Shown here: in pieces, positions 1,798 through 26,359 of the stretch | How positions within the stretch are numbered: position 1 is the first letter of the stretch | Layout: each line of letters begins with the position of its first letter | Source of the DNA: Sclerodactyla briareus | Lineage: Eukaryota > Echinodermata > Holothuroidea > Dendrochirotida > Sclerodactylidae | Length of the DNA stretch: 64,000 nucleotides | Direction: 5' to 3' | NCBI GenBank assembly: GCA_026419785.1 | Contig: JAODTK010000500.1 | Span: 360,455-424,454, forward strand | Translations under genes and position numbers: made by a program | Notes under the pieces: generated by a model | What the model was told of the DNA's origin: nothing | What the model saw: the letters and a program-made list of their open reading frames with translations, nothing else | Database searches by the model: none

Positions 1798-2612
1798 CAA
1801 TGATGCTGGACATTGAAATGGCAAACATGGTAAACAATGTTTCAAGAAATGTATCTTGTCACGAAACACGATTTCCCAAGAAACATGGCACATGCCTTGG
1901 CTCCTATCGCATCAAACATTTTATTTCAACTCACCGCCGTCTATGAGCAATCGACCAGACCTGCTCTGATCCATCCCCCCTATGCAGGGTGGATGTGAAT
2001 CTGACTGTACGCTTTCTTAGTCCATGACACCATAGGCTAACGCATTTGCCTCTGGTACTAAGTGTAACTCACGTTCACCGGATGGGGACGCATATTTTGC
2101 TGCCCCGTGAGCAGAAATATTCCCTTCCTGCCTCGTTACTTAAGAGAGGGGGGCTATACTGAGTCGTATGTCTCTCCACTCAAGCATTGGTCGACTGCCT
2201 GTCTAAGCAGTGGTTGTGGCCCTGCAGCTTGGGCGTCACAGCAGGCTGGAGGGGCGAGGTGGTCGGGAGATGTGCCATCCCCTTGCTGGGCGATGTTCCA
2301 TTCCACCAGCCCTGTAACTCCTACTATCATGATATTTTCCTAAATAATATTGTCGACGACAACCCCGACCTATTGGGCCTAATCTTACCCTTGTGCCCAT
2401 ACAGATCCAGTATATCCACCAGGGCATTTGACACTGAATAGCTGTTGATTTGGTTCGGTACAAACGTTCCCTCCTCCCTCCGTTCCAGCATGTTTTATAT
2501 TAACTGTTGGCATTCGTTCATTTCTGTTCTGCCAAAATAAAAACAACTGTTCTTGTCTTACGTGATATATAGTGTTACGTTCCTGCTGTCTACGCTCATC
2601 GTGAAAAATAAA
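1798..2612. repeat. Direct duplication, copy 2
   Basis: Second copy of the segment at 1-785, same orientation. Similarity stops abruptly near 2612, just before the inverted-repeat end of the GC-rich island (about 2640). Copy 1 continues instead into AGGCCTAGGCCTAG. The break therefore approximates the left junction of whatever was inserted at 2.64 kb. Confidence 0.85.
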
Positions 2613-2639
2613 TTCGTTTCCAGGGTATAACGGGTCTAT

Positions 2640-2885
2640 TAATGGTGCAATCATGACAAATAGTCGATTACCCCCACCTTCGTTAAGGTGGGGCTACGTC
2701 ACGAGGGGCAACTTCACCTCTGACTTACTACAACTTGCAAATCTTAACGGCCCAAAACGGCTCGCTTCAAAAACACATCTACCCTATACCACTAAAAAAG
2801 AGTTAGCACAGCGGCCGGTACCCCGAACGCAGGCCTGTCCCTAGCTGGGTGCGCAACGGTGCTGTACAATCATTCCAACTAGCAC
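2640..2885 (+). repeat. Left inverted end of the GC-rich element
   Basis: Pairs with 9430-9700 in inverted orientation, with interrupted matches over roughly 200-250 bases. The strongest stretch runs from ACTACAA through CTATACCACT to CGAACGCAG. It contains a perfect short hairpin, CCCCACCTT-CGTT-AAGGTGGGG, at about 2671-2692. Confidence 0.7.
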
Positions 2886-2965
2886 CCTATTCCCCGCTTA
2901 GTGGGGAGGACGTGCCGGGTGTCCCAAAGGTAGTTGCCCCTCGTAAGTAGCCCCTTACGAGGGGG
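2670..2965. repeat. Foldback nested in the left end
   Basis: The sequence around 2672-2730 reappears inverted at about 2905-2965. The common core includes GGGGCTAC, ACGAGGGGCAACT and CCTTACGAGGGG. This makes a roughly 300-base foldback with GC-rich stems. It may be a small non-autonomous (MITE-like) relative of the large element, or a complex subterminal structure of it. Confidence 0.6.
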
Positions 2966-3557
2966 GTTACTTACTTTCAGGACAGTGCCTACCTCTTCTG
3001 GCCTTACGACAAATTGCAACCTTCCCACCGCCATGGAGGTTGTAAGACCGGGAGCGAATTATCCAACTAATAAGAACCACTCACCGTAAAAGACGCTGAG
3101 TACCGCTCCTGGTTCACAAGGACACAGCCCAGACTCCAACATGCGCGAGCGGGCGACCCTCCCGTCACAGCAGGATGTCCCCCGATCCAGCCACAGCCCT
3201 GACACAACACCCAACGAGCCGGGCGCCGGGTGGGGAGGAGATGGGGCGCAAAGCGACGCTTACCTAGAGGCTATGTGCCCTGCCCCGGCGCGAGGGGCGC
3301 AACCTGCCAGACTGCGGATCCGAACCGCAACCCCCCGCGTGGGAGGAAAGCGGTGTCCATGCGGGATTCACTCCGCTGGGGGTCCCGAAGGTAGGCAGCG
3401 ATAAAGGTTTCTGAGATTATCCTCCTCGCAGCCGGAGAATCTCCTCCAACGGCACCCTTTATGAGCGCGAGGGAGGAAGGCCGACACCCCGCAACACGTT
3501 GAGCTCGCGGTCGAGACGGCCATTCCCGCCGGGGCCGCCCTGACGTGATCGCCACAC

Positions 3558-3848
3558 ATGACGATCCGCGAAGATTGTTTCCTCCTTGGTGGCGCGATGT
3601 ATAGAGGTCAGCAGTACAGCGCGATCAGCAACACGACGTACACGGACCACGGAGGACGGGTCCCGATCCTCTCGGTCTACCCGAAGGGCCCGGACGTGAC
3701 ACACATTGATATAAACACACCCTCAATCCCCTCCAACTCCGAGAACTCCCCAATTGCAGCGATACTGAAAAATCGAGTGCCGGTAGAAATGACCGTCTAC
3801 GGCTGTTTTAGAAGAAACGTCTGGTCCGGAACCAGGCGACCCCCGTGA
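3558..3848 (+). CDS. Unrecognised open frame in GC-rich island (96 codons)
   Basis: The frame starts at ATG and reads with ordinary protein composition, for example VTHIDINTPSIPSNSENSP followed by AAILKNRVPVEMTVYGCF. The opposite strand there gives arginine-rich, low-information frames, so the plus strand is the better coding candidate. I recognise no domain, signal peptide or membrane segment. It is the first of several plus-strand candidate segments inside the inverted-repeat island and may belong to one longer broken gene. A mobile-element protein is the default guess; no function is proposed. Confidence 0.35.
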   Translation: MTIREDCFLLGGAMYRGQQYSAISNTTYTDHGGRVPILSVYPKGPDVTHIDINTPSIPSNSENSPIAAILKNRVPVEMTVYGCFRRNVWSGTRRPP

Positions 3849-3882
3849 GGTCTCAAAACGCCTACGGCCGGATGGGTAGACA

Positions 3883-4257
3883 ATGCATGGCAGGGCACTA
3901 CGTAGGGGATCGCGACGAGCCGATGCCACCGCCGCAAGCAGGAACGCTGTCGATCAACTGACAACTGACTGCGTGGCAAGAAGCAGTCCGCTTATCTGCT
4001 CGCCAAAGGGAGGCTCCGCTAGTATCCCCGCAGACGTCCCCCATGTCCAATGGGCGGAAACGAGATTGCGAACTCTATGTCGTCGCAAGAACACTGAACT
4101 TACTGAAGCAGTAGGAGGGGGTCCGGGTGTCTTATCTCGCAGAAACACCCGGTTAGTCCATTCCTCGAATCCGCTATGTTATAAGGCCGCACAGCAAGCG
4201 GAAGCGGTACCCCGGATCTGTGTCTCACTTGCCCGCCACTATATACGAACAAAGTAG
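3883..4257 (+). CDS. Unrecognised open frame in GC-rich island (124 codons)
   Basis: A 124-codon frame downstream of the 3.56 kb frame on the same strand. Its C-terminal part (YKAAQQAEAVPRICVSLARH) looks protein-like. A second plus frame across the same DNA also reads plausibly, so the true frame is uncertain. No family is recognised. Position and base composition place it in the interior of the inverted-repeat element. Confidence 0.25.
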   Translation: MHGRALRRGSRRADATAASRNAVDQLTTDCVARSSPLICSPKGGSASIPADVPHVQWAETRLRTLCRRKNTELTEAVGGGPGVLSRRNTRLVHSSNPLCYKAAQQAEAVPRICVSLARHYIRTK

Positions 4258-5219
4258 AGGAGGAAATTCGGCCACCTCCCCGACAGCGGTCGCGGCCGGA
4301 GAACCTGGATGCCACAGCCACCCTCGGTACATCCGAGTACTGCGACTCATACAGGCGTAGGGTGGAATCTCCTCCGACCCCTTGCCTCCCATCTCGTCGG
4401 CAGCCTTCCTCCAAAGGCCCCGACCTGGAGGAATCCCGGACCGGGCCACGAAACCATGCGTAGCTTCTGGTGCGGTTGGCGCGTTCCCAGACCGGGAGCA
4501 CCAGGAAGGGTTCGGGACAGGGGAGTCCGCGGCGGCGCCCCCGCCAGCAAACGCCAGGAGTGGCCGGAAGAACCACGCTTGGGGGTCGGGCCACCAACCG
4601 GCGCTTGCAAGTAGGTCTCGCCACTCTACCCGTGCTCCCTGTCGATTACCCTCGTCGACCACCAATCTAGTCGACTAGACTGAACGGCGGGAAGGAGTAC
4701 GCGTCGAGAAAGGCCTCCATCCAGGGCCAATCCATACGACTCCCGCCAGTGCGACGCTCCCTCGACGGGACTCGTTGGTCAGAAGAGAGGAGCTTCCGCG
4801 ATGTGAGGAGGCGAGGCGAACATGTCCACCTCCGGACGATGAAACGGTCCCTCCGAACCACGCCTCACAACTCCGACCTGACGTGATGAGACCACTCCGT
4901 CGGAGCCTGACTGATGCGAGAGAGCGCTGTCTGCATTGAGTTTCTCTGACCCGGAAGTCTGACCGCTGAAGGCGCCACTCCGTCGCGCGCACCCACTGCG
5001 AGAACAGGTTCCGGGAGGTCACGGACCAGAGCCTCCGCGACGCGTCCCGCCCTGTCCGTTTATGTACAACAACCATACCTGCCGCTGTACTGTCGCCACG
5101 GACAGTACGAGGCGGCCCTGCCACTCTCGTGGCGCATATTATTTCAAAGCCCCGGAACCCCGCCCAGCACTGAGCACGTTATATGTTGTCGTCCCCCGTA
5201 ACAGCCGAATTCCCATCAC

Positions 5220-5654
5220 GTGAGCCAACGCGTTCACTCCGGAGGTGTGAGCCCCCCAGCCCTCCAGGTCCGAGGGCCCCCCGTCCGCCGTTTAGGCAAA
5301 AAGTGGACGGAAGGCGGGAACCTACCCTTCTCCCTCTGCATGACGGTGTCCCTGTTTCAGTTTCCACCACCGGATTACTCGGTCCAGGTGTGGCTTGCCT
5401 ACCACGGCACGGTCGTCGACAGATTCCCCTTAGCCGCCGGACGAAAAAACGCCAGAGGGTGGACTCTGGAGCGTTGGGCGCATGTACAGCTCGCAATATG
5501 GTATCCAGATGCCACTAGGCTCGCCATGAAGCCGAGGGAGCACCAGCCACTCCCTCGCAGGGAGAGTTCTGCCCTGAAGTCAGCCGACACCACGTCCCGC
5601 TTGCAGGGCCTTCCAGTTTCCAGGGTTGGCGTGTGGGCCCACACCGACCGCTAG
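5220..5654 (+). CDS. Unrecognised open frame in GC-rich island (144 codons)
   Basis: One of the more convincing protein-like stretches in the island. The middle reads DYSVQVWLAYHGTVVDRFPL, then GWTLERWAHVQLAIWYPDA, with normal spacing of aromatic and hydrophobic residues and a third-position GC bias. The antisense frame over 5399-5644 is also open but less natural. I see no catalytic signature of a known transposase, reverse transcriptase, polymerase or integrase. It probably encodes part of a mobile-element protein. The true ends are unknown. Confidence 0.4.
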   Translation: MSQRVHSGGVSPPALQVRGPPVRRLGKKWTEGGNLPFSLCMTVSLFQFPPPDYSVQVWLAYHGTVVDRFPLAAGRKNARGWTLERWAHVQLAIWYPDATRLAMKPREHQPLPRRESSALKSADTTSRLQGLPVSRVGVWAHTDR

Positions 5655-6223
5655 ATCGTATCCTGCGCACACCAAAAACGATACCGCGGGGACGGTCGTC
5701 AGGTCGACTGTGGCAATACTTACACGACAGCCATCCCAGACAGGACACGTACGGCAGTCTTCGGTCACACGGGTCTCCACCCGGGCAGCGTCCTGTTTTC
5801 CAGGACCGGGAAACACCTCCGAGAGAGGTGTCGGGGCTCAAAAAGGGGCGGCTCTTAGTTTCGCCCGCGAGCGGAGAGAGGCTTCAACAGTCCGGCAGGA
5901 AACATCTCCGCCGCAAAGACTTTGCCTTGACGGGCAATGCTGCAAAACTGATTTCGTGGCAGCCACAGTCTAGTAACGCCGACTGGACTTTCGCCATCAC
6001 CTCCCGCAGGAGGGGTCTGGCCACGGCGTCCCACCAACAATGGGCGAACCACTCTGCGAAGAAGAGCTGGATAGCCGAGACAGACCTTGATACCGATTCT
6101 CGCCGCACGGTCAAAAAACTGGAGATCGGCGTCTCGGTCCGCTGGGGCGATCTTCACGACGGAAGTAGGGCCTATCCCCCCTCCTTGCCGGGAGAACCGA
6201 CGCGGCCCCTCCCGACAAGGTAA
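5633..6223 (+). CDS. Longest open frame of the window (196 codons), strand uncertain
   Basis: A 196-codon plus-strand frame rich in Arg, Ser and Pro. Its centre (LISWQPQSSNADWTF and KKLEIGVSVRWGDLHDG) looks protein-like. A minus-strand frame through the same DNA (5884-6114) also reads well (FFAEWFAHCWWDAVARPLL). Both frames show GC-rich third positions, as expected when one is a mirror of the other in GC-rich DNA. Neither matches a family I know. Coding in this stretch is likely, but the strand cannot be settled by eye. Confidence 0.3.
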   Translation: MGPHRPLDRILRTPKTIPRGRSSGRLWQYLHDSHPRQDTYGSLRSHGSPPGQRPVFQDRETPPREVSGLKKGRLLVSPASGERLQQSGRKHLRRKDFALTGNAAKLISWQPQSSNADWTFAITSRRRGLATASHQQWANHSAKKSWIAETDLDTDSRRTVKKLEIGVSVRWGDLHDGSRAYPPSLPGEPTRPLPTR

Positions 6224-6421
6224 CCAGCACTGTTCCACAATCCGTGGTTAAACTGTGGGGAGGGGAACGAGAATACCATCGTACTGCCGCCTGGGGGAAC
6301 TCGAATTGAGCGGTCCTCCCGCGTTCGGGACCTCGACGGACTCCCCGTGCCCTAGCCTGAAAATCTGGAACACGGCCAGCGGCATAGGAGGGTAGAGCGG
6401 GCGGAGGCGGGATCCCGGCGC

Positions 6422-6781
6422 TTGGTCCAAACGCGCCCATCCTGTCGGATCCTCTGTTCGCGGCCTCCTGGGTCTTACACAAGTCAAGGGAGAAAGCCCC
6501 GAGCCAATTCCGTCACCAACCCAGCGTGTCTGTCTCAACGAGGCCCGTACGGGTGGCTCTTTCCGTCGACTGAAGGACCTCCTGGCCCGAAGGGCCCCCC
6601 TCCACGGAGGGTCCGAGATTCCGCAGGCGAGGACGAAGCGTCCGACCCGGAACCAACGTCGGAACGTCACGTCGATCTCCGGTTTCCGAGACCGGGCGGT
6701 GAATCGCTGTCTGTCTCCCCTCGACGGCTTCGTCGCCTGAGCCACAGCGGAGAACGTACGGGGGGAACAACCGGACACTGA
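6422..6781 (+). CDS. Unrecognised Pro/Ser/Arg-rich open frame
   Basis: A 119-codon frame with a collagen-like GPPGPKGPPP patch, an acidic GEDEASDPEPTSE patch and a basic Ser-rich tail, which looks like a disordered protein tail. The minus strand offers competing frames (6248-6778), so assignment is weak. It lies in the same island and possibly continues the preceding frame. Confidence 0.2.
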   Translation: MVQTRPSCRILCSRPPGSYTSQGRKPRANSVTNPACLSQRGPYGWLFPSTEGPPGPKGPPPRRVRDSAGEDEASDPEPTSERHVDLRFPRPGGESLSVSPRRLRRLSHSGERTGGTTGH

Positions 6782-7210
6782 AAACCATCCCGGCTCGCGG
6801 AGTGTCCGTTGTTGTCGATGAGGGGGGAGGTGGACCAGCGACCCCCCGGCCCCGGGCGGAGGCTCGTCAACTCCGGTCGTGACAGCCTTGAGCCAACACC
6901 GCCGTCCGGGACTGAAAAGCTTCCAACGTGGAAGCTAATTGCCCGCGTGAAGCATCGCGCTTCTTCTTAGGCTACGGACTTATACGAGGCTGGTTTGCTC
7001 CTCTTCTTCCTCAATCCGAGGACGACTGCAGGGGGGTGGGGGCGTTACCCGTCCACGGACGGGACCTAGGCAGTCCTGGGGGGCGAGATAGAGAGGGAAC
7101 AAAACAAACTCCGACCCGTCCTGGCGAAGTCTCTACCGAGGTTTCCCAGGCATCGCCAGGGGGATTGGGAATCCCCGAAGGAGACCCAAGCGTAGAACCG
7201 TCCTCGATGT

Positions 7211-7396
7211 TTGTATGGGCTGCAGCCCAGGGGGCATCGCCCCCAAAAACCCCGGCTTGCGCCCATTGACGGTGCCCTACAGGAACACCTACGTGAAGAT
7301 CTCCAACGGGTTGGGCGCATAACACTAGTTGACAACGTCACCCCGACAGCCCCTGTGGACGGCCGTTCCCTGAACCGTTCCCTACCAGGGTCCTGA
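7211..7396 (+). CDS. Unrecognised short open frame, GC-rich island
   Basis: A 61-codon frame whose centre (APIDGALQEHLREDLQRVGR, then ITLVDNVTPTAPVDGRS) reads like folded protein and ends in a stop. The DNA between it and the basic-tail frame at 8.9 kb is extremely G/C-biased and gives no convincing frame. No homology is recognised. Confidence 0.25.
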   Translation: MYGLQPRGHRPQKPRLAPIDGALQEHLREDLQRVGRITLVDNVTPTAPVDGRSLNRSLPGS

Positions 7397-8899
7397 CGGT
7401 ACCGACGGATCGGGAGACCGCCTAAACCCATATGGCTGTGGATGCTCCAGGATCCCGGTCTCCCCCCACCCCACAGGGGAACGATTTCCCTGCCCCTGCA
7501 CCCCCGGCGCAGGGGTCGTTCCACCCCCATGCAGAGCAACGGTCCTTGTGGGCTGGGGGGCTGCGGCCGGAACCCGAAACGACGAAGGCCTGTCCCTAAC
7601 CCGGTTTAGGGATGGAGCGACGGAAAGGGGTGACTGCAGACGGGCCGACCTACAGTTTGTATGCTGGTCTAAAACAGGCGGTCCCCGCATGGACCTAGCT
7701 CATTCCCCCCCAACCCACTAGGCCGACGCGGCACGGGCGCCTGAGGTGGGGGGAGAGTGGAGGGGGGACTGATCAGCAACACCCGAGTGCCCAGAGGAGA
7801 TCGCAATGGGTCCCTGAAGACCCGTTGGTGTACGAGGTATTAAGCCATTTGGCCCTTCAACGAAGAGACCGGCACCACCAAGACTCGTCCCCTTTTTCGC
7901 GGGCCGTCATTCTCCTTCGCCTTTGTCTCCTCCTTGCTCTCTCATTCTTTCCTCCGCCCCATGTACTGGCGGACGCCACAAGGGACCACAGTGGAGGGAA
8001 AGGAAGGACAGGACTCAAGGTCCAGACGCCGCCGTAGAACTGGGAGTACCCGGAGGGATCCCCACCAAGCGTGGGGTTTGAGCGCACGCGAGCGGGGGCC
8101 GACTCCGCATAAAAAAGGGAAGGAACCTCTGATCCGTTGCGGGGTGCGCTGGCTCGGGACATTGTAACGTAATGTTCGTCTTACAGATCGGTAAAAAAGC
8201 AAACAACCAGAGTTAGTAAATCAGTATGTACTCAACTAAGTATCTCTAACAAGATACAATGTACCGAAATGTGGTAAAGACGCCTTGAAGAAGCGCCCGA
8301 GGGGTCCAACAATGGACCTGCCTCTGCAGCCCTACTCTAAACGTCAAAGTTTGCAACTTTGGACCCCCTAGGCTTACCGTTTACGAGATTTAATAGTGCA
8401 AAACGTGAAATGCACGAAACGGTAAAGGCCCACCTCCCCCCCTTACCGAGGAGGGTGGGGAGGAAAAGCTGACCGGTCAGAGTGCCCCTTATGGAAACCC
8501 AAAACAAAACCACCCACACCCCTGGGTCTAACGGCCCCCAAGGCCCACCTAGGGAGGGGAGGGGTGAAGGAATCCCCCCGAACGTGGTGAACATAAGATG
8601 GCCGCCCAAGCTACTTGCGGTGAACCGTCACCGCTCGAAAGACGCTCATCTGAAAGAGGAACAAAATCTACAGTCCATGACGTGAAAAGAAATTTTTGCC
8701 CCATCCCGCTCTAGCCCGACTTACTGCGGGCGCCATATGCGTGAACGTGTGCCACTATATAATAAAATAGGACTATAAGACGCACAACAATCTGGCACCC
8801 CAAGGCATTCCGTAGCGAATGCTAAAAAAAGAACGTTAGGATGCCCGAATTGGTATGCAAATTAGGCAACGGTCTGAGAGCCAAGCGCTCTGAGCGCCT

Positions 8900-9154
8900 G
8901 TGGGCCTAATAAGCCACACATACACCGACTACTGGAAAACACCACTGACACAAGTCAACGTACGGAAACTACCCCCATACGCCACAGTGGGTAAACTCCT
9001 GTGCAAGCAACGCGATAGCGGAAGAGTCAGGGGGGAAAAACCGCCTACGAACAGTGGGGAAAAATCCCCCTCCCGGAGCCCAAGGGGGCGGACAGAGCCC
9101 AGAAAGGGCACAACGAACCGTACCCAGATAGCGGGAAAGGCGAAACGCACCTAG
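8900..9154 (+). CDS. Basic, disordered-looking open frame, partly conserved in duplicate
   Basis: The C-terminal half is Lys/Arg/Ser/Pro-rich (EKSPSRSPRGRTEPRKG) and ends KAKRT-stop just inside the right end of the GC-rich element. The tandem copy has an open frame at 13155-13340 with a similar tail (TPSRSTSGRTERGEGG, ending GKRT-stop). The shared tail supports real coding on the plus strand. No domain is recognised; the basic composition suggests nucleic-acid binding, which is inference only. Confidence 0.35.
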   Translation: MGLISHTYTDYWKTPLTQVNVRKLPPYATVGKLLCKQRDSGRVRGEKPPTNSGEKSPSRSPRGRTEPRKGTTNRTQIAGKAKRT

Positions 9155-9429
9155 CCCGGCGGGAGGGAGAAACCCAGCCCCCCGGCAAGAAATGAACGTC
9201 CGGCCAAACGAAGCCCAAACAAAGACCCGGAGGCACACACACAAGACCGCACTGGCCCCCTAACATAGCCTACGATCCCAAGAATTTGGGTCAGGAATGA
9301 GTGAATTAGATACAGAAAAAACACCCCAACCCCAAAATGCATTATAAATCACCTGATAATGGTTGGAAAGTGGCAGAAATGGCGTGAGAAGCGTCGAAAT
9401 GAGAAGCTCGCGATTAGAAAACAGTAGCC

Positions 9430-9700
9430 GAGTGTTGGCTATGCAACACACACCGAAAAGACTTGATAAGTACACCACCTGGCCCGCACCCAACTAGTTA
9501 CGGCTGCGTTCGGTACCGTCGCTGTGCTTAACTCTTTTCCAGTGGTATAGGTGTGTTGAAGCGGGGCGGGCCTGTTTGGGCCGAAAATGCAATTTGTAGT
9601 GAGTCCCGAAGGTAAGTGCCCTGAGTCATGTACAGTTGTTTCTGAACATAACTCGACTATTAAACTGAATATTTCACCGCTTACCTTCAGGTAATGGTGA
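9430..9700 (-). repeat. Right inverted end of the GC-rich element
   Basis: Reverse complement of the left end (2640-2885). It contains CTAGTTACGGCTGCGTTCGG, CGGTACC and GGCCGAAAATGCAA. The same sequence recurs at about 13650-13870 in the tandem duplicate, so three copies of this end are in the window. Confidence 0.7.
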
Positions 9701-10464
9701 GTAATATTCCAATATTATCCGTTCAAAACGTCAAATCGTCGAAAGGGCCAGATCGTGTTCTCTAATCATTGCTACTGTTATACTTTTTTTTTTCAAATTC
9801 ATAATCTTCAATTGTTGGAACTCTATGAGTTCAGCTTTTTAAGTTTTCTTTGAATGTAGAACGATTTAGTGTGACAAAGAGTCTCTTGAATCAATGTTCT
9901 CCTATGCTATTGACTATTTTTGAACCCCCATTGCCATATCCTTCAGATCGGATGTCATCCTTCGTCTCCTCGGAGCTCGCCAGCTGATTAGGTGGCGATT
10001 TAGCACTCGGGCCAATGTTAGCAGCCTGAGTGTTTCGCAGAGTAGCAATGACTACCCGGAGGCCATCAAGTAGCAATATATGGCCAGTTATGACTGCAAC
10101 GTCTAAAAAATGCCATCGAATAATTCCAACCGATTGCTATTGGTGAAGTGTCCTTCCTATGCACCTGAACTATCATACAATTTTTCGGTGCACATGCTAC
10201 TGATCACTATCACATTCAAGTCAATGGTAATCATCATGCCAACAACATGCATGAATGGGCGTGTCCACGTTCTAGTCTCCACGTCGATCTCCCCCCCTCC
10301 CAAGAAGTGACACTGCCGGTGTGTGAATTGCCTTTGCAGGTAATCTGTTTGGTCATGAGATCTGCTGGGCCCTATTGCGGCGGCCATTTAGGGGGGGTGT
10401 TGACCACAGTTGGACTCACATCAATAATCTGGTTTACGGTCTATAACTCCTTCTCAATCCTATC

Positions 10465-10585
10465 TATATATATAGCTACTATATATGATATATATTTATA
10501 TATAAGGGTATAAATATATTCTATATATATCTCTATATATATTATATATATTAGATATATTATATATATTAATAATAGAGATAAT
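10465..10585. repeat. TA-rich microsatellite
   Basis: About 120 bases of imperfect (TA)n. Its counterpart in the second tandem unit lies near 14559-14683. Confidence 0.9.
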
Positions 10586-10937
10586 ATATGAAAAAATATA
10601 CAAGCATCGTACTCCTTCAGGTTCACTTTGATGCTGCCACCAACGTCAAGACTGCAGGGGCAACGCAGGCGTTCCGGATTTTAACTGGTGCTCTCTCTCT
10701 GCAACATGTAGGGTGACAAAAGAATTGTGAGAACTGATATTTCATTCAAACCCAGAGAACAAGAACTATCCAGAAGACTCTCATTTACGCGTATCGTAGG
10801 CTATCCTAACTTTGACGTTTACGATTTGTTATCCTTTGTTTGGCCATTCTTTTTTAGGATTTTTAGGGTTTTTTCCTGCATAACTTCCTGCCTCACGTTG
10901 TCTGTACTTGTTGCACGTGCCGCGCTAGCTCAACATA

Positions 10938-11022
10938 GGGGGGGGGGGGGGGGGGTGGGGGGGGAGATGACAACTTGCGTGAATTTGGTGGGCTAAATGT
11001 TGTCGGAGGGGGGGGGGGGGGG
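10938..11022. repeat. Paired G homopolymer runs
   Basis: Two G runs (10938-10964, interrupted once by T, and 11008-11022) have counterparts at about 15118-15133 and 15176-15187 in the second unit. Confidence 0.9.
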
Positions 11023-11219
11023 TGTTCATATTCCTGAGGTCCGTGGCGTCCCTTCACACCCTTTCAAATCTGCATTTTACCACTGGAGGGATCTTCACAT
11101 ATCGTTATTGAAAACCACACTATTGTTTCGTTCCGCAACTAAGAAATACTATAAGAACAGAACTATCAAAACGCATTCTGGGCTCTTAAGGGTCAGAGTC
11201 GGTGGGTGTACAGAATAGG

Positions 11220-11537
11220 AATGGAGAGTACTGAAGCAATCGGACACACACCAGCGCGAATCACGATCTGCAACACCTGTGCATTCCTCTTGCTAAGCAC
11301 TGGCTATACAAGATCTTGACAGACAGTCGCATCAACAAAATATCCGAGTGTTATCACATCACTGTCCGCCAGCGAAACCGTAACACCACTCACCGTTTAC
11401 GTCCAAGCCGAGATAGGCTCCGTCAGTCAGGAGGGGCCATCCGCCTGAAGATCGGTGCGCAGTGCATATATATACACTTCAGAGTGGCGCTAAAAGACTA
11501 TACGCTAGTTGCATACTATGTGTGTATATTAAATTAG
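11220..11537 (+). other. Possible conserved coding piece in tandem units
   Basis: Both tandem units contain similar plus-strand peptides here. Unit 1 reads TDSRINKIS in an open frame at 11316-11537. Unit 2 (15372-15656) reads ESTEAIGHTPARN and then TDSRINKRSELL. Peptide similarity might simply reflect DNA similarity of a recent duplication, so coding is unproven. No domain is recognised. Confidence 0.2.
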
Positions 11538-12008
11538 TCAAGCTGTCATTATTGCCACAGGGACATACCTCCTAATGACGAGGAAACAAGAGACGCAACA
11601 TCTTGGTAGACTACCCAATTACTGACAACGGTTATAGGGTATTACGGCCTATATGTCGTGCTATAAGCCTCGTTAAGTTCCGTATGTTTTTGCACTTATG
11701 CGAGATATATTTTTCAACAAAAACATGATGAAACACACACTAAAGACAACAAATGAAAGTGTAGTGACCACTCATTGCGTCGAGAGCTTCCTTGTATTTT
11801 TTCCGTCCGGTGCCATAGGCTTTTATTCATTTTTTGTTCAATGTCTACATACATTTTCGCCTGTTACCTCGTAGTGCGGTTTATTTAGTCATTTTGTGAG
11901 TCTGTGATCAGAGAGGCCAGTTTGTCTCATTTGGACAGGGAGCTGGGGCCGTCTTTATGTACTCGCCCTATATGTTGTGTCGGATTGATTGCTTTCTCAT
12001 CCTTTGTT

Positions 12009-12136
12009 CTATATATATATATATATATATTATATAATATATATATATATATTATATATATATATATATATATATTAATATATAGATATATATAATATAT
12101 AGTATATATATATATATATATAAATTATCTATATAT
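12009..12136. repeat. TA-rich microsatellite near unit boundary
   Basis: About 130 bases of imperfect (TA)n at the end of tandem unit 1. Its counterpart is at 16100-16229 at the end of unit 2. Confidence 0.9.
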
Positions 12137-12232
12137 GAATAACAACATGGGCTTTTTATCCATGGGCCGCAGTGTACGCCCACTATGGTCATAATGGTGG
12201 CGTCAGCATGTTCTCCTCCGCTCATGACGCAA

Positions 12233-15200
12233 GGTCCGACGCGCCGTAGAACGGGAGAAACGGAGGGATCCCCACCAAGCGTGGGTTTTGAGCGTACGCC
12301 CGAGCGCCGACGCCGCAGTAAAACGGGAGGACCTTGATCCTTGCGGAGTGCGCTGGCTCGAGGACATTGTAACGTTGCATGCTCTTCGTCTTACAGACTG
12401 GACTAAAAAGCAAACAAACCGAGTAGTAAATCAGGTAATGTACTAAAAACTAAGGACTCTACATAGGCAATGTACTCGAAATAGGTCAACCCCCCCCGGA
12501 CCCGGAGAGCCGCGAGGGTCAACAATGCCCCCTGCCGCCCTACTCTAAAGTCAAAGTTGCAACTTGGACCCCCTAGGTTTACCGTGTGACGAGATCTAAG
12601 GCAAAACGTGAAAATTGCACGAAACGGTAACGGCCCACCCCCCCCCCTTACCGAGGGGGGTGGGGAGGGAAAAGCATGACGTAGAGGGGCCCTAGGGGGA
12701 ACCCAAAGACACCCAAACCCTGGGTCTACGGACCCCAGCGCCACCAGGGCAGGGGGGGGGCGGGGAAACGACGACGGGTGAAAATAAAGAGGCCGCCACA
12801 GCTAAGCGGTGACGTCACCGCTCGAAAGACGGCTCATCTGAATAAGAGGAACAAAAATGCTAAAGGTCAGGGACGTGAAATAGGAAAATTTTTGACCCTA
12901 TCCCAGCTATAGCCAAGCTAGCGGGCGACAATGCGTGAAGGACATATTAATAAAAATAGGACTATAGACCAAAACAAATGGAACCCAAGGCAGCAGTAGA
13001 GAATGCTAAAAAAAGGAACGTGAGGCTGCCCTATTGATATGCAATTAGGCAACGGCCTGAGAGCAAGCGATCTGAGAGCCTGAGTGCCTAGCCACACCGA
13101 CTACGGGGAAAAACACACACAAAAGGTCAACGGAGGAAAAAACCACTAGCCACAGTGTGTAAAAGCCTAGTGCAAGCAAGCGATAGGCGAAGGAGGGGGG
13201 AAAACCGCTACGAACTAGTGAGGAAAAATACCCCCTCCAGGAGCACAAGCGGGCGGACAGAGCGGGGGGAGGGGGGACCAGAAGGGCTCAAACGAACCGG
13301 CCATTTAAAACAAGATAGCTGGAAGGGAAAACGCACCTAGCCCGGGCGCGGGAGGGACGAAAACCCAGCCCCCACGGAAGAACGGTCGCCCAAAACGAAG
13401 ACCAAAACAAAAGACAGGGCACACAAACAAGACGCCGCACTGGCCGCTAACGAAAGTTACGATCCCAAGAACTGGGCCAGGAATGAGGGAATAATACAAA
13501 AAAACCCACCCACAACCCAAAACAAGGAATTATATCACCTGATAATGGTTGGAAAAGTGGCAAAGTGGCGTGTAGAAGCGTCGAAATGAGAAGCCGCGAG
13601 GAGAAAACAGTAGCCGAGTGTGCTATGCAACACACACCGAAAAAGAATGATAGTACAGCACCGCTGCCGCACCCAACTAGTTACGGCTGCGTTCGGTACC
13701 GGCGCTGTGCTTAATCTTTTAGGGTATTAGGGTGTGTTGAAGCGGGCCGTGTGGCCGAAAATGCAATTTGAGTAAGTCCAGAAGGAAGTGCCCGAAGTAA
13801 GCTTACAGTTGTTAGTGCACATAACTCGACTAATGAACTGAATATTGCACCGCTTATCCTCAGGTAAGTGGTAATATTCCAATATTATCCGTTCAAAACG
13901 CCAAATCGTCGGAAGGGCAGATCGGTTTATTTAGTACGGTTATACTTTTTTTTTGTAAATTAAATTCATAATTCTGCAATTGTTGGAAACTATATGCGTC
14001 AGCTTCTTTGAATGTAGACGATTAGTGTCAAAGAGGTATCGAATCAATTCCCTATGCTATTGAGCTAGTTGAACCCCCATTGCCATACCTGCAGACGGAT
14101 GCATTAATGTCGTCTCCGCGGAGATCGCCAGTGTTACGATATTAGCCACTCGGGCCACATGAGTAGGCAGTGAGCTTCGCGCATAGTAGCAATTATACCG
14201 GAGCCATCAAGTATCAATATTATTGCCAATGACTGCAACGTCTAAAAAGCACGATAATTCCAACCGATTGCTATTGGTGAACGGGTCCTTCATATGCACT
14301 GCAACTATCATACAATTTTCGGTCACAAGTGAAACTGATCACATCAAGCAATGTATATCAGTCATGCAAAAAATCATGCATGAGGGGTTTGCATCCACGT
14401 TCGTCCCCTCCCCCCCCCCCCAAGAAGGGACAACTCGGTGTGGGAATGCATTCAGGTATCTGTTGATCAATTGAGATCTGCGGAGCTCTATTACTCAGTT
14501 TGTTGGCCACAGTGGGATCAATAATATGTTTATCGTCTCATAACTCCGTTCAATCCATCTATAACTATATAGAGATATATATTATATTCTATATATATAA
14601 TATATATATATATACTTAACTATTATATAATAGTATATATATATATTATATAATATCTATATATATATATATATAGATATATCAATATCGTACTCCTCCT
14701 GTTCTTACTTTGATGCTTCAACCCACTTCAAGGACTTCGTGTAAAAGTCCACTGCTTCCATGATTTTTAACTGCTCTCTTCAAAACATGAGTGGTGACGA
14801 AAGAATTGTTGATAAAAATTATTTCACCAGAGAGAACAAGAAATTAACCTAGTAAGAACGGCTCATTTACGCGTATCGTAGGCTATCCTTAACAATCGCT
14901 TACGTTTGTATCCTTTGTTTGTCATTCTTTTTAGGATTTTTAGGGGTTTTCCGGCATTAACTGCCTCACGTGTCGTACTTGTTGCACTGGCCCCCCCCCC
15001 CCCCCCCCCCTCCTCTTCCCCCTTCCCCCCCCCCCCCCCCCCCCCCGCCCCCCCCCCCCCCCCGTTTTTTTTTTTTTTTTTTTTTTCTCTCCGCTCTTAG
15101 GCCGCCTCAAACATAGGTGGGGGGGGGGGGGGGAGAGAAACATTGCGAAATTTGGAGGGCTAAAATTTGGTAGGAGGGGGGGGGGGTGGTTCATATTCCT

Positions 15201-16187
15201 GAGGTCGTGGCGCCCTTCACCTTCAATATGCATCTTTACACTGGAGGGGATTCCAAATTATAGGTATTGAAACCACACAGTCGTTCCGCAACAAGAAAAT
15301 AATCGATAAAGAAACGAACTACAAAAACGCATCTGGGCTATGAAGGGCAGAGGGGTGGAGTACAGAATTTAATGGAGAGTACTGAAGCAATCGGACACAC
15401 ACCAGCGCGAAATCGGCATCTTGCAACATATGATGCTAGGCTAAGATGGCTAGTCAGATTGACAGACAGTCGCATCAACAAAAGATCCGAGCTGTTATAC
15501 ACTCTGTCGGACATAGAAAACCGAAACCCACACGTCGCAAGCCGAGATAGGCTCCGTGATCGGAAATCCGCTGAAGATCGGTGCGAAGTGCATATTATGA
15601 ACTCAGAGTGGGGCGAAACGGAGATAAGTTTAGTTGCCATACTATTTGTATATTAATTAGTCAAGCGTCATTATGCCCCAGGGATATTATCTTCTAATGA
15701 AGAGGAAACAAGAACGCAAACATCGATGGGTAGACTACCCAATTACTGACAACGGTTATAGGGTATAGCTATATGTCGTGCTATAAGACTCGTTAATAAG
15801 TATGTTTGTCAATTGGAAATTTTCAGACAAAAAACATGCGTGACACACAATAAAGACAAAAGAATGAAAGTGAGTGACCACTCTGCCGTCGAGAGCTTCC
15901 TTGTATTTTTCCGTCAGTGCATAAAGGCGGTATTGATTTTTTGCTCAAAGTCTGTGTGCTTTTTCGCTGTGTACTCGTAGTGCGGTTAGTAGTCATGGTG
16001 AATTCTGGATCAAGAGGCCAGTTGGTTCATCTGAATATGGAGTCCGTCTTTATGTACTGACTATATGTTGTGTCGGATGTGTGCTTCATCATCTTTGTTC
16101 GATATATATAGATATATAATATATATATATATAGATATATATATATATATAATATATATATATATATTATATATATAGTAATTATAT

Positions 16188-16218
<31 letters not shown>

Positions 16219-16310
16219 GATATATATACATGGGTGTTTTATCCATGGTCGCAGTGTACGCTCACTAGTGTCAGTAATGGTGGCGACGAGTCATGTCTCC
16301 TCCCGCATGG
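12233..16310. repeat. Tandem segmental duplication, unit 2
   Basis: Second copy of 8010-12232, slightly shorter, same orientation. It starts near AAGGTCCGAC and ends just past TTTATCCATGG and GTGTACGCTCACTA. It includes a second copy of the right inverted end of the GC-rich element (about 13650-13870). It carries a C/T homopolymer block (14991-15090) that unit 1 lacks. Confidence 0.9.
14991..15090. repeat. C/T homopolymer block specific to unit 2
   Basis: About 70 bases of nearly pure C, broken by a few T and one G, followed by about 25 T. The equivalent place in unit 1 (near 10920) reads TGCACGTGCCGCGCTAGC with no such block. A G run follows 30 bases later, so C-rich and G-rich tracts face each other. 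This is either a strand-slippage expansion or an assembly artefact. Confidence 0.9.
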
Positions 16311-16638
16311 ATCTGGAGACGTGAAGATAGAAGTCTTGGCGGGATTCCATGAGCGTATGCGTACCGGGCTCGATGTGAAAATAACATATCTACGAAAAAA
16401 GAATGTGTTTCAGAGAGAAAACACTATAAGTGTATGCGAAAAGACCATTAAAAAGGCAGAGCTGCATATTGTCGGTGCTTGGCTTTTTGAGGAAGTTATT
16501 CAAATTAAATTCATTGCGGTGATACGCATCCGCATCCGCATTGGTAACATGTGCTTATTTCGCTTATTCAGCGTTGGTTTGCCTTCCTTCATGAATTTTT
16601 GGCTTCTGTGGACCCAATATCTATCCTTGGCAAACTAA
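16234..16638 (+). CDS. Unrecognised 134-codon open frame, doubtful
   Basis: Starts at the edge of tandem unit 2. It has a run of alternating Ile/Arg from CGCATC repeats near residue 110 and no domain I know. Its first part overlaps the duplicated segment, but the frame is not kept open in unit 1. Probably chance. Confidence 0.12.
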   Translation: MFYPWSQCTLTSVSNGGDESCLLPHGSGDVKIEVLAGFHERMRTGLDVKITYLRKKNVFQRENTISVCEKTIKKAELHIVGAWLFEEVIQIKFIAVIRIRIRIGNMCLFRLFSVGLPSFMNFWLLWTQYLSLAN

Positions 16639-19330: not shown

Positions 19331-20330
19331 GGAAGCCACACACCGTGTTAGCTCAGACAAACGCATTTTTTTTTCCTACCTGCAATCTTTCGAATTTGAG
19401 GTGATATATCGTCCAGGGTTGGTTCCATCCCAATGCAGATGCCTTAAGTCGGCGTGTGTACGACGCGAACCTGACAAGCGTGTTGAGTCCCAGTCCACCC
19501 GTGGCCAAAACACTAACGCTTCTGCTCACGAAAAAAAGGGGTGGGGTGAAAAGGCGGCCAAAAAAGAGCGGAAAGAGGTGATGTCACTGGATATGGTGAT
19601 TGACTAATTGGGAGAGGAATTTTGCCAAAAGACCAGAACGAATGTCGTACCTTCTTTTTGAATGCCCCATAATTTTGTTGATGTCGCACGTTTTGTACCA
19701 TGTTGCCGAGGCGAGAACGAACGACGCAAAACTAAGCCAATCGTGTCATTCAATTGTTGTACCTCGGGCCTTGTAAACCCATTGCCTAACAGAGGTCCCA
19801 CGATTCGTCAGTTACAGGGGGGCACTTTGGCATATCTCGGACCATCGAGAAAGCAAGATAGCGGTTATTTCTTGAAGGAACGTACAAAGATATCGTGAAT
19901 GGGAAAAATGGTGTTACCGGTGTCAATCAACGCATCGCCCAATGTATCCTTAACAGGCACATCTCACCCCTACCCGTACAGGACCATTCAACGTGTAAGC
20001 ACAGATCTTTTAGGACCACGCCCTATTTAACCTATGGATCAGGTAAATCAATGACCTAGTCTTTTCGACTCATTACTAAATACGCGATTGGTCGCAATCC
20101 CCGATAATACGGCCCGTACATTGCCAGGGCTTTACATAGGTAATTTGCCGCTACGGTTCCCCGAGTCTGCCCATTCAGATAGAGGGCAAACTTTCTTTCC
20201 AAAATCGTGCTTGAGGTGTGCAGGTTGTTCGAGTTACTAACTACTAACCTAATTAAACGAGCGATTGTTCGCCCCGCCATTGGACCCGAGTCCAAACCCC
20301 CTGTATTGGACTCGTAACCTCCCTCTCTAA
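19330..20330 (+). mobile_element. Ty3/Gypsy LTR-retrotransposon pol remnant (RNase H end to integrase)
   Basis: Old, broken copy, plus strand. Parts in order: the tail of the RNase H domain (the LQSFEFEVIYRPG signature near 19.38-19.43 kb), a linker, the zinc-binding head of integrase (near 19.87-19.95 kb, with the WCYRCQ-type block) and the integrase core (PFNVVSTDLLGP-like block near 20.0 kb and a HSDRGQTF-type block near 20.18 kb). Order and spacing match Ty3/Gypsy pol. Upstream reverse transcriptase, gag and LTRs were not identified. Many breaks are present, so the copy is a fossil, though some may be consensus errors. Confidence 0.8.
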
Positions 20331-23308: not shown

Positions 23309-24570
23309 CCGTCATGGTCGCGCTAATATTGTATATTTCAAACTAAAACTCGTTGTTTTTGTTGCAATTTGTAATTCGCTACGTATGGCAACATTATTAC
23401 CGAGCGGCTAATCACCGCGGTCTTTCCTTCCTGGATACACACCCCCAATACATCCATCCAAACCTCTCGTTTTATTATCAGAACTCACTTCGCATGCAAA
23501 TGGCCGCAATAGCACTTTGGCTCCTTATCTCCGCCCAATTGCGAAATTTTTATCACTTCATTGCGCAATTTATCGGCATTCGATGAACTATCGTCGATAA
23601 AAGTTGAATAAAATTCACCTTGACGTCCGATAAAATATCGTATTTTTTTTGTATCGTTACCGCGTGAGTAACAGCCCTTACTTCTGTGTTTTCCGTAGTA
23701 CTGTAAAACAGACAGTAATTCGGCACTTTCGAATCCATCCGGATGTTAGTAAGGGCGGGCATGTGTACTATTTTCAGATCAATCCGATAACACCCATTGA
23801 ACATTATTGAGTTAACGCCTGAAGTTTTCAGCGACGGTTGGCGGCGGAGACGATGGCGGCGGACACAGCCTGACAACCATCATATCCCCGAACAACTTAC
23901 ACACGTGGCGTGGATATATTTATCTATTATTATCAGTCAGTGCAAATATCCTATCCTATATACTATCTTATCCACATCAAATTTTTGTGAATAATCCAGT
24001 TGTCAATTATTACAAGGGTGTCGAATTCTGCCCATCCACTCGCCATGTGCCTAAAACCCGTTACTGAAAGATCGTATAAGGTTGCATATACCGTGTTTGG
24101 CTGACACTCTCTGGAGTCGCTGTTATCCTCCCCTGTCCCAAATACACTTTCAAACTTTCAAATTTTTGTGAACAAAAGGGTTTTCGTTGGCAATGGTGAA
24201 ACGCCAATTTAGGGCAGCTTCCTATCCGAATTTGAGCAGACGAAGCTTCATATACGGATCGATTCTGTGGAAAATTGTAGTAGCTTCGTTCGACGATAGT
24301 AAATCGCGAGTAACGACGGCGTCATTGCTTGTTGTTACGATGCAAAACCTCTCCCTACGTTCCGTTTCGCTGGGGGTTTTCAACAAATTACAACAATTTG
24401 ATACCCCGTCGGACGTATATTTGTTCGACTAGAAGAACGGTATGTACAAGTGCCTCGTCCAAGGTGTGTGGAACTGTTGAAGCGTCGTCCCCCTGCACTG
24501 TGTAGCACGGATGTTTTTTTCACCCTCCCTAAAAATGACTTCCTGATTACCCACGAAGTGTTTAAGTCTG

Positions 24571-24690
24571 GTGGTCTGGACCGCAACGTCAAGGTTGGCT
24601 AAACCGTAAGGGCATATTTTAACATAACCCCCATCATTTATGGCACTGAGATGTTTGTAATCGCGAGATTATTAGGAGATAAGCACAATC
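24571..24690 (-). pseudogene. Second EGF-like piece, unit A (copies in B 26861-26993, C 29171-29309)
   Basis: Within each unit a second segment resembles the EGF-like exon (internal duplication). In unit B the minus strand reads SQCHHIDGGYVKICPYGLAN, parallel to the SQCQNIDGV part of the better exon. The expected second Cys pair is poorly kept and no GT donor is visible at the end corresponding to the donor of the better exon. It is therefore probably a decayed exon copy, or an exon whose boundary I cannot place. Confidence 0.3.
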
Positions 24691-24871
24691 TTCTCGGTTC
24701 AATCTCTCACCATACTGATGATACCTCCAAATACTATAGGTGGAAAAAATAAGACAAAGCTTAGACATCCTTTGACTGGTTAGCATGGGAAAGGATCTCG
24801 TCCAGCTTGTACATCAAATTTGTTGCAGAACTTAGACTAATGGAAGAATTAACCTAAATACTATACTCGAC

Positions 24872-25020
24872 CCGTGCAGGTCGCCGCATTCCAGTTGAGT
24901 TCACTCCATTTATAGCTTTTTTCCTGCCTTACACATCACTGAGAACTCCATCGATATTTTGGCACTGGGATGTTTTGTAAGTCCCGAAATGGGTATAAAA
25001 GGAAGCCATTCGGTTGATAT
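24872..25020 (-). CDS. EGF-like exon candidate, unit A
   Basis: About 149 bases between an acceptor-like ACGCAG and the position of the donor seen in the other units. Here the donor reads GTCGAG rather than GTGAG, possibly a base error. One frame reads DINRMASFYTHF and then SQCQNIDGVL; in the other units the rest reads C-x-C-KAGYNG. The pattern C-x-N-x-x-G ... C-x-C-x-x-G-Y-x-G is that of an EGF-like domain, and exon size fits. EGF repeats are extracellular modules. Neighbouring units carry the same exon, as in genes with many EGF repeats. The frame breaks once relative to the other copies. Confidence 0.45.
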
Positions 25021-25469
25021 CTGCGTAATGGGTGGATAAAGTATTATTGATCTCGTCATTCATCACCATACGGTAATCTTTTCAAATACGCAGGTAGAAG
25101 AAACAGAACACAGATTGGACATACCCTGACTGTTTAGCAATGGGAGAAAATGACCCTGCTAAGATTGGTCTATATCTCCCCAAGCTTATGCCCATATGTA
25201 ATGAATGCCACATGGTCATTTCATTCGATTCATCTATCAAATTTTATGTATAAGTGAATGAGGGTTTTTGCTCTGTCATTTCCTCAGCACCAAAGGGCCT
25301 GGTGAGACTGCACCCAATTTGCCATTTCACCTTTACTGTTGCTGGTTGCGATAGCCACGACGCTAAAGTAACCATATTAGTGGTTAAGACTATCCACTAA
25401 GGGCTACCCTATGGTAGATACCATTGGTGCTTGGTTGATCTAGCAATTGGGTGCACTCGCGAAAATTCT

Positions 25470-25580
25470 GTGTGTGCATGTGTTGTGCGTTTGCGTGGGT
25501 GTGGGTGTGTTTGCGTGGTGTGTGAGTGGGTATGTGTGTGTTGTGGTGTTTGTGGTCGTGCGTTTGCGTGTCTGTCAAAT
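25470..25580. repeat. TG-rich low-complexity stretch, unit A
   Basis: Imperfect (TG)n with CGTTTGCGTG variants. The counterpart in unit B is at about 27805-27890. It lies in the intron-like part of the unit. Confidence 0.8.
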
Positions 25581-25936
25581 TTTTAATTCTCGCAAATAAC
25601 TCCACTTCGGATTCAACAAATAGCACAGATTTTGCAGTTTTTATTTCGGAAATATTCCGTCTTATTATGACTCTGATTTTTTTTTTTCGGGGCGGTTGTT
25701 TTCAGACATATTTGTGTATAAATTCCGTCCATTGGCAACTTGCAAAACATTTTTTTGCAGATAAACGACAGAATAGTTCCACATTTTCCAGTAATTACCT
25801 CAGCGCAGTTGTTGTACTGCTTACCCATTTGACTGAGGTTCTGGTGCCCATGCTTATCAAGGATTAGCCCTGCATTTCACTTTGCTCCGCCTTCCCCACC
25901 GTTAATACTTACTGAGCTGCTGATTTTGCGAAACCT

Positions 25937-26179
25937 TCAGAAACAGACGTCGTCTGAATACCAAGCGTCCGAGTTGTGAGTGCAGTTATATAGGCCACAA
26001 CTATAGCGTTGGTGTTTATGGTCATGTTTGAGCCTTCCCACTAGCCCGTGTCCTGTCGCACACCTGCACTTGCAACTTGTACCACACCAACATGAAATGC
26101 CCTTTTGGACAACAGTCGGTATTTTCTCTTCTAAATTATTTTCCATATGTATGAATGTCATCTTGTTCATTCCATCCAT
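25937..26179 (-). CDS. Cys-rich minus-strand frame in unit A, possible further exon
   Basis: The frame reads ISCWCGTSCKCRCATGHGL, then HDHKHQRYSCGLYNCTHNS, with nine cysteines in about 50 residues and one N-glycosylation motif (NCT). That fits a secreted or extracellular module on the same strand as the EGF-like exons. In unit B (28210-28420) only part of the cysteine pattern is kept (HDHKHQ, NCTH), so conservation is ambiguous. No family assigned. Confidence 0.25.
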   Translation of the reverse strand: MDGMNKMTFIHMENNLEEKIPTVVQKGISCWCGTSCKCRCATGHGLVGRLKHDHKHQRYSCGLYNCTHNSDAWYSDDVCF

Positions 26180-26359
26180 TCACTTATCAAAGCTGTTGTA
26201 TGAATTAACTAGGGGTCTTCGCTTGTTTTCATTTGGAGTATCGTGTGGTATTTGTTGGGCTTATCCGACAAGCCGTACTCAGTATTGTTACCTTTCCGGC
26301 TCTCATAGAAGACAGGAATTACCCTACACGAGTCTTGTACTGGCTGACCCATTTTGGCA

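What the first reader, a model, noticed from the sequence alone, without database searches (positions are those of the whole stretch)
2640..9700. GC-rich inverted-repeat island encoding no recognisable family
Related inverted ends of about 200-250 bases enclose roughly 7 kb of strikingly GC-rich DNA in an AT-rich locus. Several interior frames read like real protein (around 3.6, 5.3 and 7.3 kb), yet I see no transposase, integrase, polymerase, helicase or capsid motif. This could be an undescribed large DNA transposon or TIR element.
Basis: partly seen in the sequence, partly recalled or inferred. Interest (0 to 1): 0.7.

Follow-up and report, generated by a model that had tools for sequence, protein, structure and literature searches.

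The report
A DIRS1-like retrotransposon, read backwards
The GC-rich island is one damaged copy of a multi-copy DIRS1-like retrotransposon, a known kind of jumping element, in an animal genome assembly so full of sequencing errors that its genes could not be recognised.

Summary
The inverted ends and GC-rich interior are real; the reading as an undescribed DNA transposon is not supported. The island (2667 to about 9631) recurs at 40 or more places in its 319 Mb genome. Copies are about 75% identical, with differences that look mostly like raw long-read errors, so frames break and profile searches fail. The coding strand is minus. Proteins of three DIRS-type elements, apparently host DNA in bacterial assemblies, match 15 of 17 element sequences: 72 hits, 72 on the minus strand, 0 in a reversed control. 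They cover reverse transcriptase (15), RNase H (9) and tyrosine recombinase (5), in DIRS order. The termini fit DIRS1 too: inverted repeats, a one-sided extension, internal complementary regions (16 of 17 each), no detectable target duplication. The window's own copy gives no protein hit; it lacks about 0.95 kb including most of the reverse transcriptase. New member of a known kind; 11 of 17 measured copies span 7.1-7.8 kb, longer than the 28 elements of a published table. Interest is low.

The parts
2667..9631 (-). DIRS1-like retrotransposon copy, sense strand = minus, internally deleted
   Evidence: common borders of copies; protein matches of copies all on this strand
9470..9631 (-). left terminus in sense orientation (lITR), ending ...CCCTGAAGTAAGT on the plus strand in most copies
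   Evidence: alignment with 2722-2867; matches of other copies mostly stop at about 9624 and the flanks show a few shared bases more
2667..2880 (-). right terminus in sense orientation (rITR)
2667..2693 (.). hairpin-forming right extension (rE-like): in copies about TTAACCCCCCTTCGTTAAGGGGGG, not seen at the other terminus
   Evidence: repeated inverted at the ICR
2932..2966 (-). right internal complementary region (rICR), complementary to the rTer end
   Evidence: 2690-2713 vs 2954-2932, 92% over 24; beats shuffles in 16 of 17 sequences
2967..3018 (-). left internal complementary region (lICR), complementary to the lTer start
   Evidence: 2995-3018 vs 9611-9588, 83% over 24; beats shuffles in 16 of 17 sequences
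3399..4518 (-). tyrosine recombinase region (mapped from copies)
   Evidence: YR ORF of L061, aa 666-1018, matches L021, L022, L030, L034, L037 at positions mapping here
4437..5272 (-). RNase H region and the following DLFAS-containing region (mapped from copies); window piece 4868-5059 matches the L024 RNase H piece, 59%, E 6e-6
5273..5716 (-). remaining 3' part of the reverse transcriptase and the stretch up to RNase H (mapped from copies)
   Evidence: L061 pol aa 195-374 in L033, L023, L034, L039 maps here
5716..5773 (.). site where other copies carry about 0.95 kb more, including most of the reverse transcriptase
5773..9469 (-). sense 5' region, expected place of gag; no homology found
   Evidence: multi-copy; no protein match
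12223..13801 (-). second partial copy of the sense 5' end, part of a 4.2 kb tandem duplication that includes flank (8009-12219 / 12223-16303)

Best explanation
The island is one internally deleted copy of a DIRS1-like tyrosine-recombinase retrotransposon lying on the minus strand. Shown here: many copies with common borders; inverted terminal repeats; a hairpin extension on one terminus only; internal complementary regions that reproduce, inverted, the join of the two ends; RT, RNase H and YR coding pieces in the copies, in DIRS order on one strand; no detectable target duplication. Inferred from the published DIRS model: the element is copied through RNA; the complementary regions bring the two ends together into a circle; the recombinase inserts the circle by crossing over at a short (3-bp) junction, which leaves no target duplication. 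This copy should be dead on its own, because about 0.95 kb including most of the RT is missing (inference; an assembly error there is not excluded).
For: Left end, interior and right end gave 50, 51 and 41 matching rows, with 40 of 184, 280 and 253 candidates scored. Raw RT and RNase H pieces of the copies match reference contigs: RT of L033 to L063 E 2e-10, to L061 E 2e-7; RNase H of L024 to L063 E 5e-8. The reference elements L061, L063, L050 carry RVT_1 (E 1.4e-22, 2.8e-23, 1e-18); RNase H families in L063 (one above cut-off) and L061 (below cut-off); Phage_integrase in L061 (1.5e-4) and L050 (6.4e-5), both below the curated cut-off. Their translated ORFs give 72 tblastn hits at E<=1e-3 (low-complexity filter and composition correction off) in 15 of 17 element sequences, 72 of 72 on the minus strand, 0 in the same sequences reversed, 0 in the rest of the window outside 2601-16400. 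RT in 15, RNase H in 9, YR in 5, all three in L034 and L037. ICR complementarity exceeds 30 shuffles in 16 of 17 for each ICR. No TSD: mean longest shared word 4.36 in 14 own pairs vs 4.01 in 182 mismatched pairs. Reference L061 has the same end-to-ICR arrangement, 26 nt at 100%. Published DIRS1 anatomy agrees: ITRs, two ICRs, rE of 9-75 bp, no TSD; DLFAS, given as DIRS1-specific, and YLDD, shared with LTR elements, occur in raw pieces.
Against: The window's own copy and L036 give no protein hit at E<=1e-3. Direct Pfam scans of the six window frames and of 35 frames of 10 copies (not all six frames of each) found nothing convincing; a lone Dimer_Tnp_hAT, E 0.017, in 1 of 20 frames of A2 was not backed by a recalled-motif search, and I did not find out which frame it was. 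Profiles of raw RT pieces found only two envelope glycoproteins at E 0.44 and 0.87 in the PDB, and RNase H pieces nothing. Gag and methyltransferase were not found. L063 gave no Phage_integrase hit.
Confidence: 0.94

Rival explanations
1. An undescribed DNA transposon with terminal inverted repeats, moved by a transposase.
For: Inverted ends, many copies; a weak Dimer_Tnp_hAT match, E 0.017, in 1 of 20 frames; two of 14 copies share 6-bp words across the element (L031, L032).
Against: RT pieces in 15, RNase H in 9 and YR in 5 of 17 element sequences; no target duplication above chance; ICRs, which to my knowledge (recalled) are not a feature of DNA transposons.
Confidence: 0.02
2. Another tyrosine-recombinase retrotransposon (PAT- or Ngaro-like) rather than DIRS1-like.
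For: RT/RNase H/YR alone do not separate these groups; no tree was built.
Against: The ends are inverted with ICRs, not split direct repeats; the paper names split direct repeats for PAT (passage).
Confidence: 0.03
3. An endogenous virus with hairpin ends.
For: Hairpin at one terminus; considered before the coding pieces were read.
Against: DIRS-type pol and YR, and termini explained by DIRS anatomy. Pfam scans gave no credible viral family, but with this noise that is weak; no library of animal viruses was searched.
Confidence: 0.01

Closest known systems
DIRS1-like retrotransposons (28 annotated in PMC3266345, Table 3, section 10 read)
   Same: RT-RNase H-YR, inverted terminal repeats, one-sided right extension (published 9-75 bp, here about 24-27), two ICRs of about 40-60 nt near the sense 3' end, no target duplication
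   Different: Mostly 7.1-7.8 kb (11 of 17 measured) against 3.8-6.3 kb in that table; GC 0.58-0.61 in 16 copies; about 4.1 kb from the 5' end to the first pol match in L021, against about 2.3 kb in L061
L061, DIRS-type element in the Bathymodiolus brooksi gill symbiont assembly (probably host DNA)
   Same: RT/RNase H ORF overlapping a YR ORF; terminus starting ACTTACCT... repeated inverted near the sense 3' end
   Different: 5.4 kb contig, GC 0.40; protein identity of hits about 25-45%
PAT-like and Ngaro-like YR retrotransposons
   Same: Tyrosine recombinase and reverse transcriptase
   Different: Split direct repeats instead of inverted repeats with ICRs (for PAT; for Ngaro recalled)

Membership tests
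DIRS1-like retrotransposon | Reverse transcriptase of the DIRS/Ty3 kind (YLDD) | tested here: met
   15 of 17 element sequences match the reference RTs; YLDD in L031, L032, L033, L036. Not in the window's own copy, where most of it is missing
DIRS1-like retrotransposon | RNase H after the RT | tested here: met
   9 of 17; window piece 4868-5059 matches the L024 piece
DIRS1-like retrotransposon | Tyrosine recombinase at the 3' end | tested here: met
   5 of 17 match the YR ORF of L061 or L063; catalytic residues not all verified in one copy
DIRS1-like retrotransposon | Inverted terminal repeats | tested here: met
DIRS1-like retrotransposon | Two adjacent ICRs at the 3' end, complementary to the two termini | tested here: met
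   16 of 17 sequences for each ICR beat 30 shuffles; L040 fails for the first, L028 for the second
DIRS1-like retrotransposon | No target site duplication | tested here: met
   14 copies vs 182 mismatched pairs; 6 of the 19 copies left out for unclear or cut ends; noise limits the test
DIRS1-like retrotransposon | Common 3-bp end motif and circular junction | tested here: inconclusive
   Window-left borders often read ATT or GTT; the ICR reads about TTAAC/TTAAAC, but noise blurs the junction
DIRS1-like retrotransposon | GAG ORF and methyltransferase domain | tested here: inconclusive
   The upstream ORF of L061 gave no match; no MT family hit even in the references
TIR DNA transposon | Constant target site duplication | tested here: not met
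TIR DNA transposon | Transposase gene | tested here: inconclusive
   no credible match, but noise makes this weak; RT/YR found instead
LTR retrotransposon | Direct terminal repeats | tested here: not met
   End-to-end matches within the element are inverted

The most novel reading that the evidence does not exclude
The family is an enlarged, GC-rich DIRS1-like lineage with roughly 1.8 kb of extra sequence 5' of pol (against L061) that could hold an additional gene, and a terminus carrying its own hairpin. The evidence shows the extra length but not its content.
Probability: 0.3. Interest if true: 0.3.

Novelty: new member of a known kind. Interest (0 to 1): 0.14.

Why it matters
Mostly as a caution: in an unpolished long-read assembly, 'no recognisable family' says little, because an indel every 30 or so bases hides even a well-conserved polymerase. 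Comparing the copies and their termini settles the question. It adds one large DIRS1-like family whose copies are still close to each other, and shows the ICR/ITR anatomy preserved across many copies.

Tried and rejected
Profile scans of the window frames, of raw copies and of raw pieces found nothing convincing; three frames of another part of the window gave Integrase_H2C2, E 4.8e-5, 23.8 bits against a cut-off of 25.5, so detection is possible but weak. Three-base periodicity and ORF length by strand (slight excess on both strands, mean z 1.4 and 1.6) did not settle coding; the highest 300-nt periodicity value of the island sits at the plus frame near 3.6 kb, which I cannot explain beyond chance or the coding strand opposite. 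DNA search of phages and plasmids with the island, and protein search with one frame or piece each: no match. IMG/VR by peptides of plus-strand frames: no usable locus; TIR pattern: none. A piggyBac-like (TTAA) or hAT reading of the ends was considered and dropped: no matching duplication. Profiles of raw RT and RNase H pieces against the PDB: nothing credible. Of 20 fetched stretches, 16 were kept as oriented copies; L026/L027 (one element split over two stretches), L035 (cut by the contig end) and L038 (two elements, unclear left end) were left out of the counts of 17, which are these 16 plus the window copy. The TSD test used 13 of the 19 copies plus the window; L025, L026, L029, L033, L035 and L040 were left out for unclear or cut ends.
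Full report
What is there. GC rises to 0.60-0.63 over 3001-8000 in a window otherwise mostly at 0.37-0.50. The ends are related in inverted orientation: 72.5% over 153 columns (E 1.3e-15), and 76.3% over 173 columns against a second right end (E 1.6e-20).

The DNA is noisy. Tandem copies inside the window are about 73-80% identical over their main alignments, with many gaps; transversions outnumber transitions in the larger pairs (for example 9:59 and 57:139 ts:tv), though not in the 29.9-30.8 kb repeats (37:39 and 16:13). Element copies aligned to L021 show 12% mismatches, ts 4769 and tv 8506, and one gap opening per 16 columns. That is the pattern of unpolished long reads more than of ageing copies, and it breaks a frame about every 30 bases per copy (inference). 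So failed profile scans are weak evidence of novelty.

It is a repeat family. The window lies in a 319 Mb assembly of 3171 contigs. Searches gave 50, 51 and 41 matching rows for the left end, interior and right end, with only 40 of 184, 280 and 253 candidates scored, so these are lower bounds; some rows are arms or pieces of the same copy. Copies share the borders, about 2667 and about 9631. Of 17 copies whose span could be measured, 11 lie at 7.1-7.8 kb, four are shorter and two longer. The window copy lacks about 0.95 kb at 5716/5773 relative to L021, L024, L025, L036, L037 and L040.

What it encodes. Raw minus-strand pieces of the copies read as RT (FGLSTAP, YLDDWL) and RNase H with its following region (VDLFASPLNAKLP, APFWPTQ); that I took these for DIRS signatures was first from recall. 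A degenerate pattern for the DLFAS motif found 6 stretches in IMG/VR and 17 in bacterial and archaeal assemblies. Of these 23, three match the raw RT and RNase H pieces well: L050 and L061 (bivalve gill symbiont assemblies) and L063 (a Proteobacteria MAG). They carry long overlapping ORFs and are probably host DNA (inference). Pfam gives RVT_1 at 1e-18 to 2.8e-23 in all three, RNase H families in L063 and, below cut-off, in L061, and Phage_integrase in L061 and L050, below its cut-off. Their proteins give 72 hits at E<=1e-3 in 15 of 17 element sequences, 72 of 72 on the minus strand; the same sequences reversed give 0, and the window outside 2601-16400 gives none. The two sequences without a hit are the window copy and L036. 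Mapped to the window, the order from right to left is RT remnant (up to 5716), RNase H (about 4.9-5.27 kb), DLFAS region, YR (4518-3399). Most of the RT falls into the stretch missing from the window copy. The window itself keeps a recognisable RNase H piece at 4868-5059 (59% to L024, E 6e-6).

The termini. In the copies the window-left terminus begins with a hairpin, about TTAACCCCCCTTCGTTAAGGGGGG, that the other terminus lacks, followed by the inverted repeat. At 2932-3018 lie two adjacent stretches, one complementary to each terminus; each beats 30 shuffles in 16 of 17 sequences (L040 fails for the first, where its left border was set differently, and L028 for the second). Flanks show no target duplication above chance: mean longest shared word 4.36 in 14 own pairs, 4.01 in 182 mismatched pairs; the longest own matches are 6 bp, in L031 and L032. 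This is the published DIRS1 anatomy: ITRs, a right extension, two ICRs overlapping at a 3-bp circular junction, integration without target duplication (PMC3266345: passages, section 10). DLFAS as a DIRS1-specific motif, and YLDD as one shared with LTR elements, were seen in passages of PMC2685390. The reference L061 has the same end-to-ICR arrangement (26 nt, 100%).

Mechanism, inferred from the published model: reverse transcription of the transcript, circle formation guided by the ICRs, insertion by the tyrosine recombinase at a short shared motif. Nothing here tests activity.

Novelty. A new member of a known kind. Its usual length exceeds all 28 elements in the table read (3793-6283 bp). 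In L021 about 4.1 kb lies between the 5' end and the first pol match, against about 2.3 kb in L061 (positions), so about 1.8 kb is extra; its content is unknown. I make no claim that the family is unpublished: Repbase could not be searched.

Limits. 

Noticed in passing
8009-12219 and 12223-16303: A 4.2 kb head-to-tail duplication, 74-78% identical in its main pieces, that includes the element's 5' part and its flank; with a long C/T/G homopolymer run near 14990-15130. Could be real or an assembly artefact.
   Followed up: partly
1-791 and 1801-2606: Direct duplication with a period of about 1.8 kb ending just left of the element; differences are 9 transitions to 59 transversions.
   Followed up: partly
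24104-27433 and 26373-29780: Tandem repeat of about 2.3 kb period, about 80% identical, not examined.
   Followed up: no
19790-19897, plus strand: Integrase_H2C2 match (E 4.8e-5, below the curated cut-off) in a read-through frame: probably remains of a gypsy-type LTR retrotransposon.
   Followed up: no
L050, L061, L063: Contigs filed under bacterial species carry DIRS-type retrotransposon ORFs, probably host contamination of symbiont or metagenome assemblies.
   Followed up: partly
3558-3845, plus strand: A scan of IMG/VR reported two stretches encoding a relative of this antisense frame but returned no locus.
   Followed up: no
G000:C1338:210616-214922: Three successive partial copies of the element's interior in tandem.
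   Followed up: no
L032 3257-4801: About 1.5 kb inserted in one element copy relative to the window; not identified.
   Followed up: no
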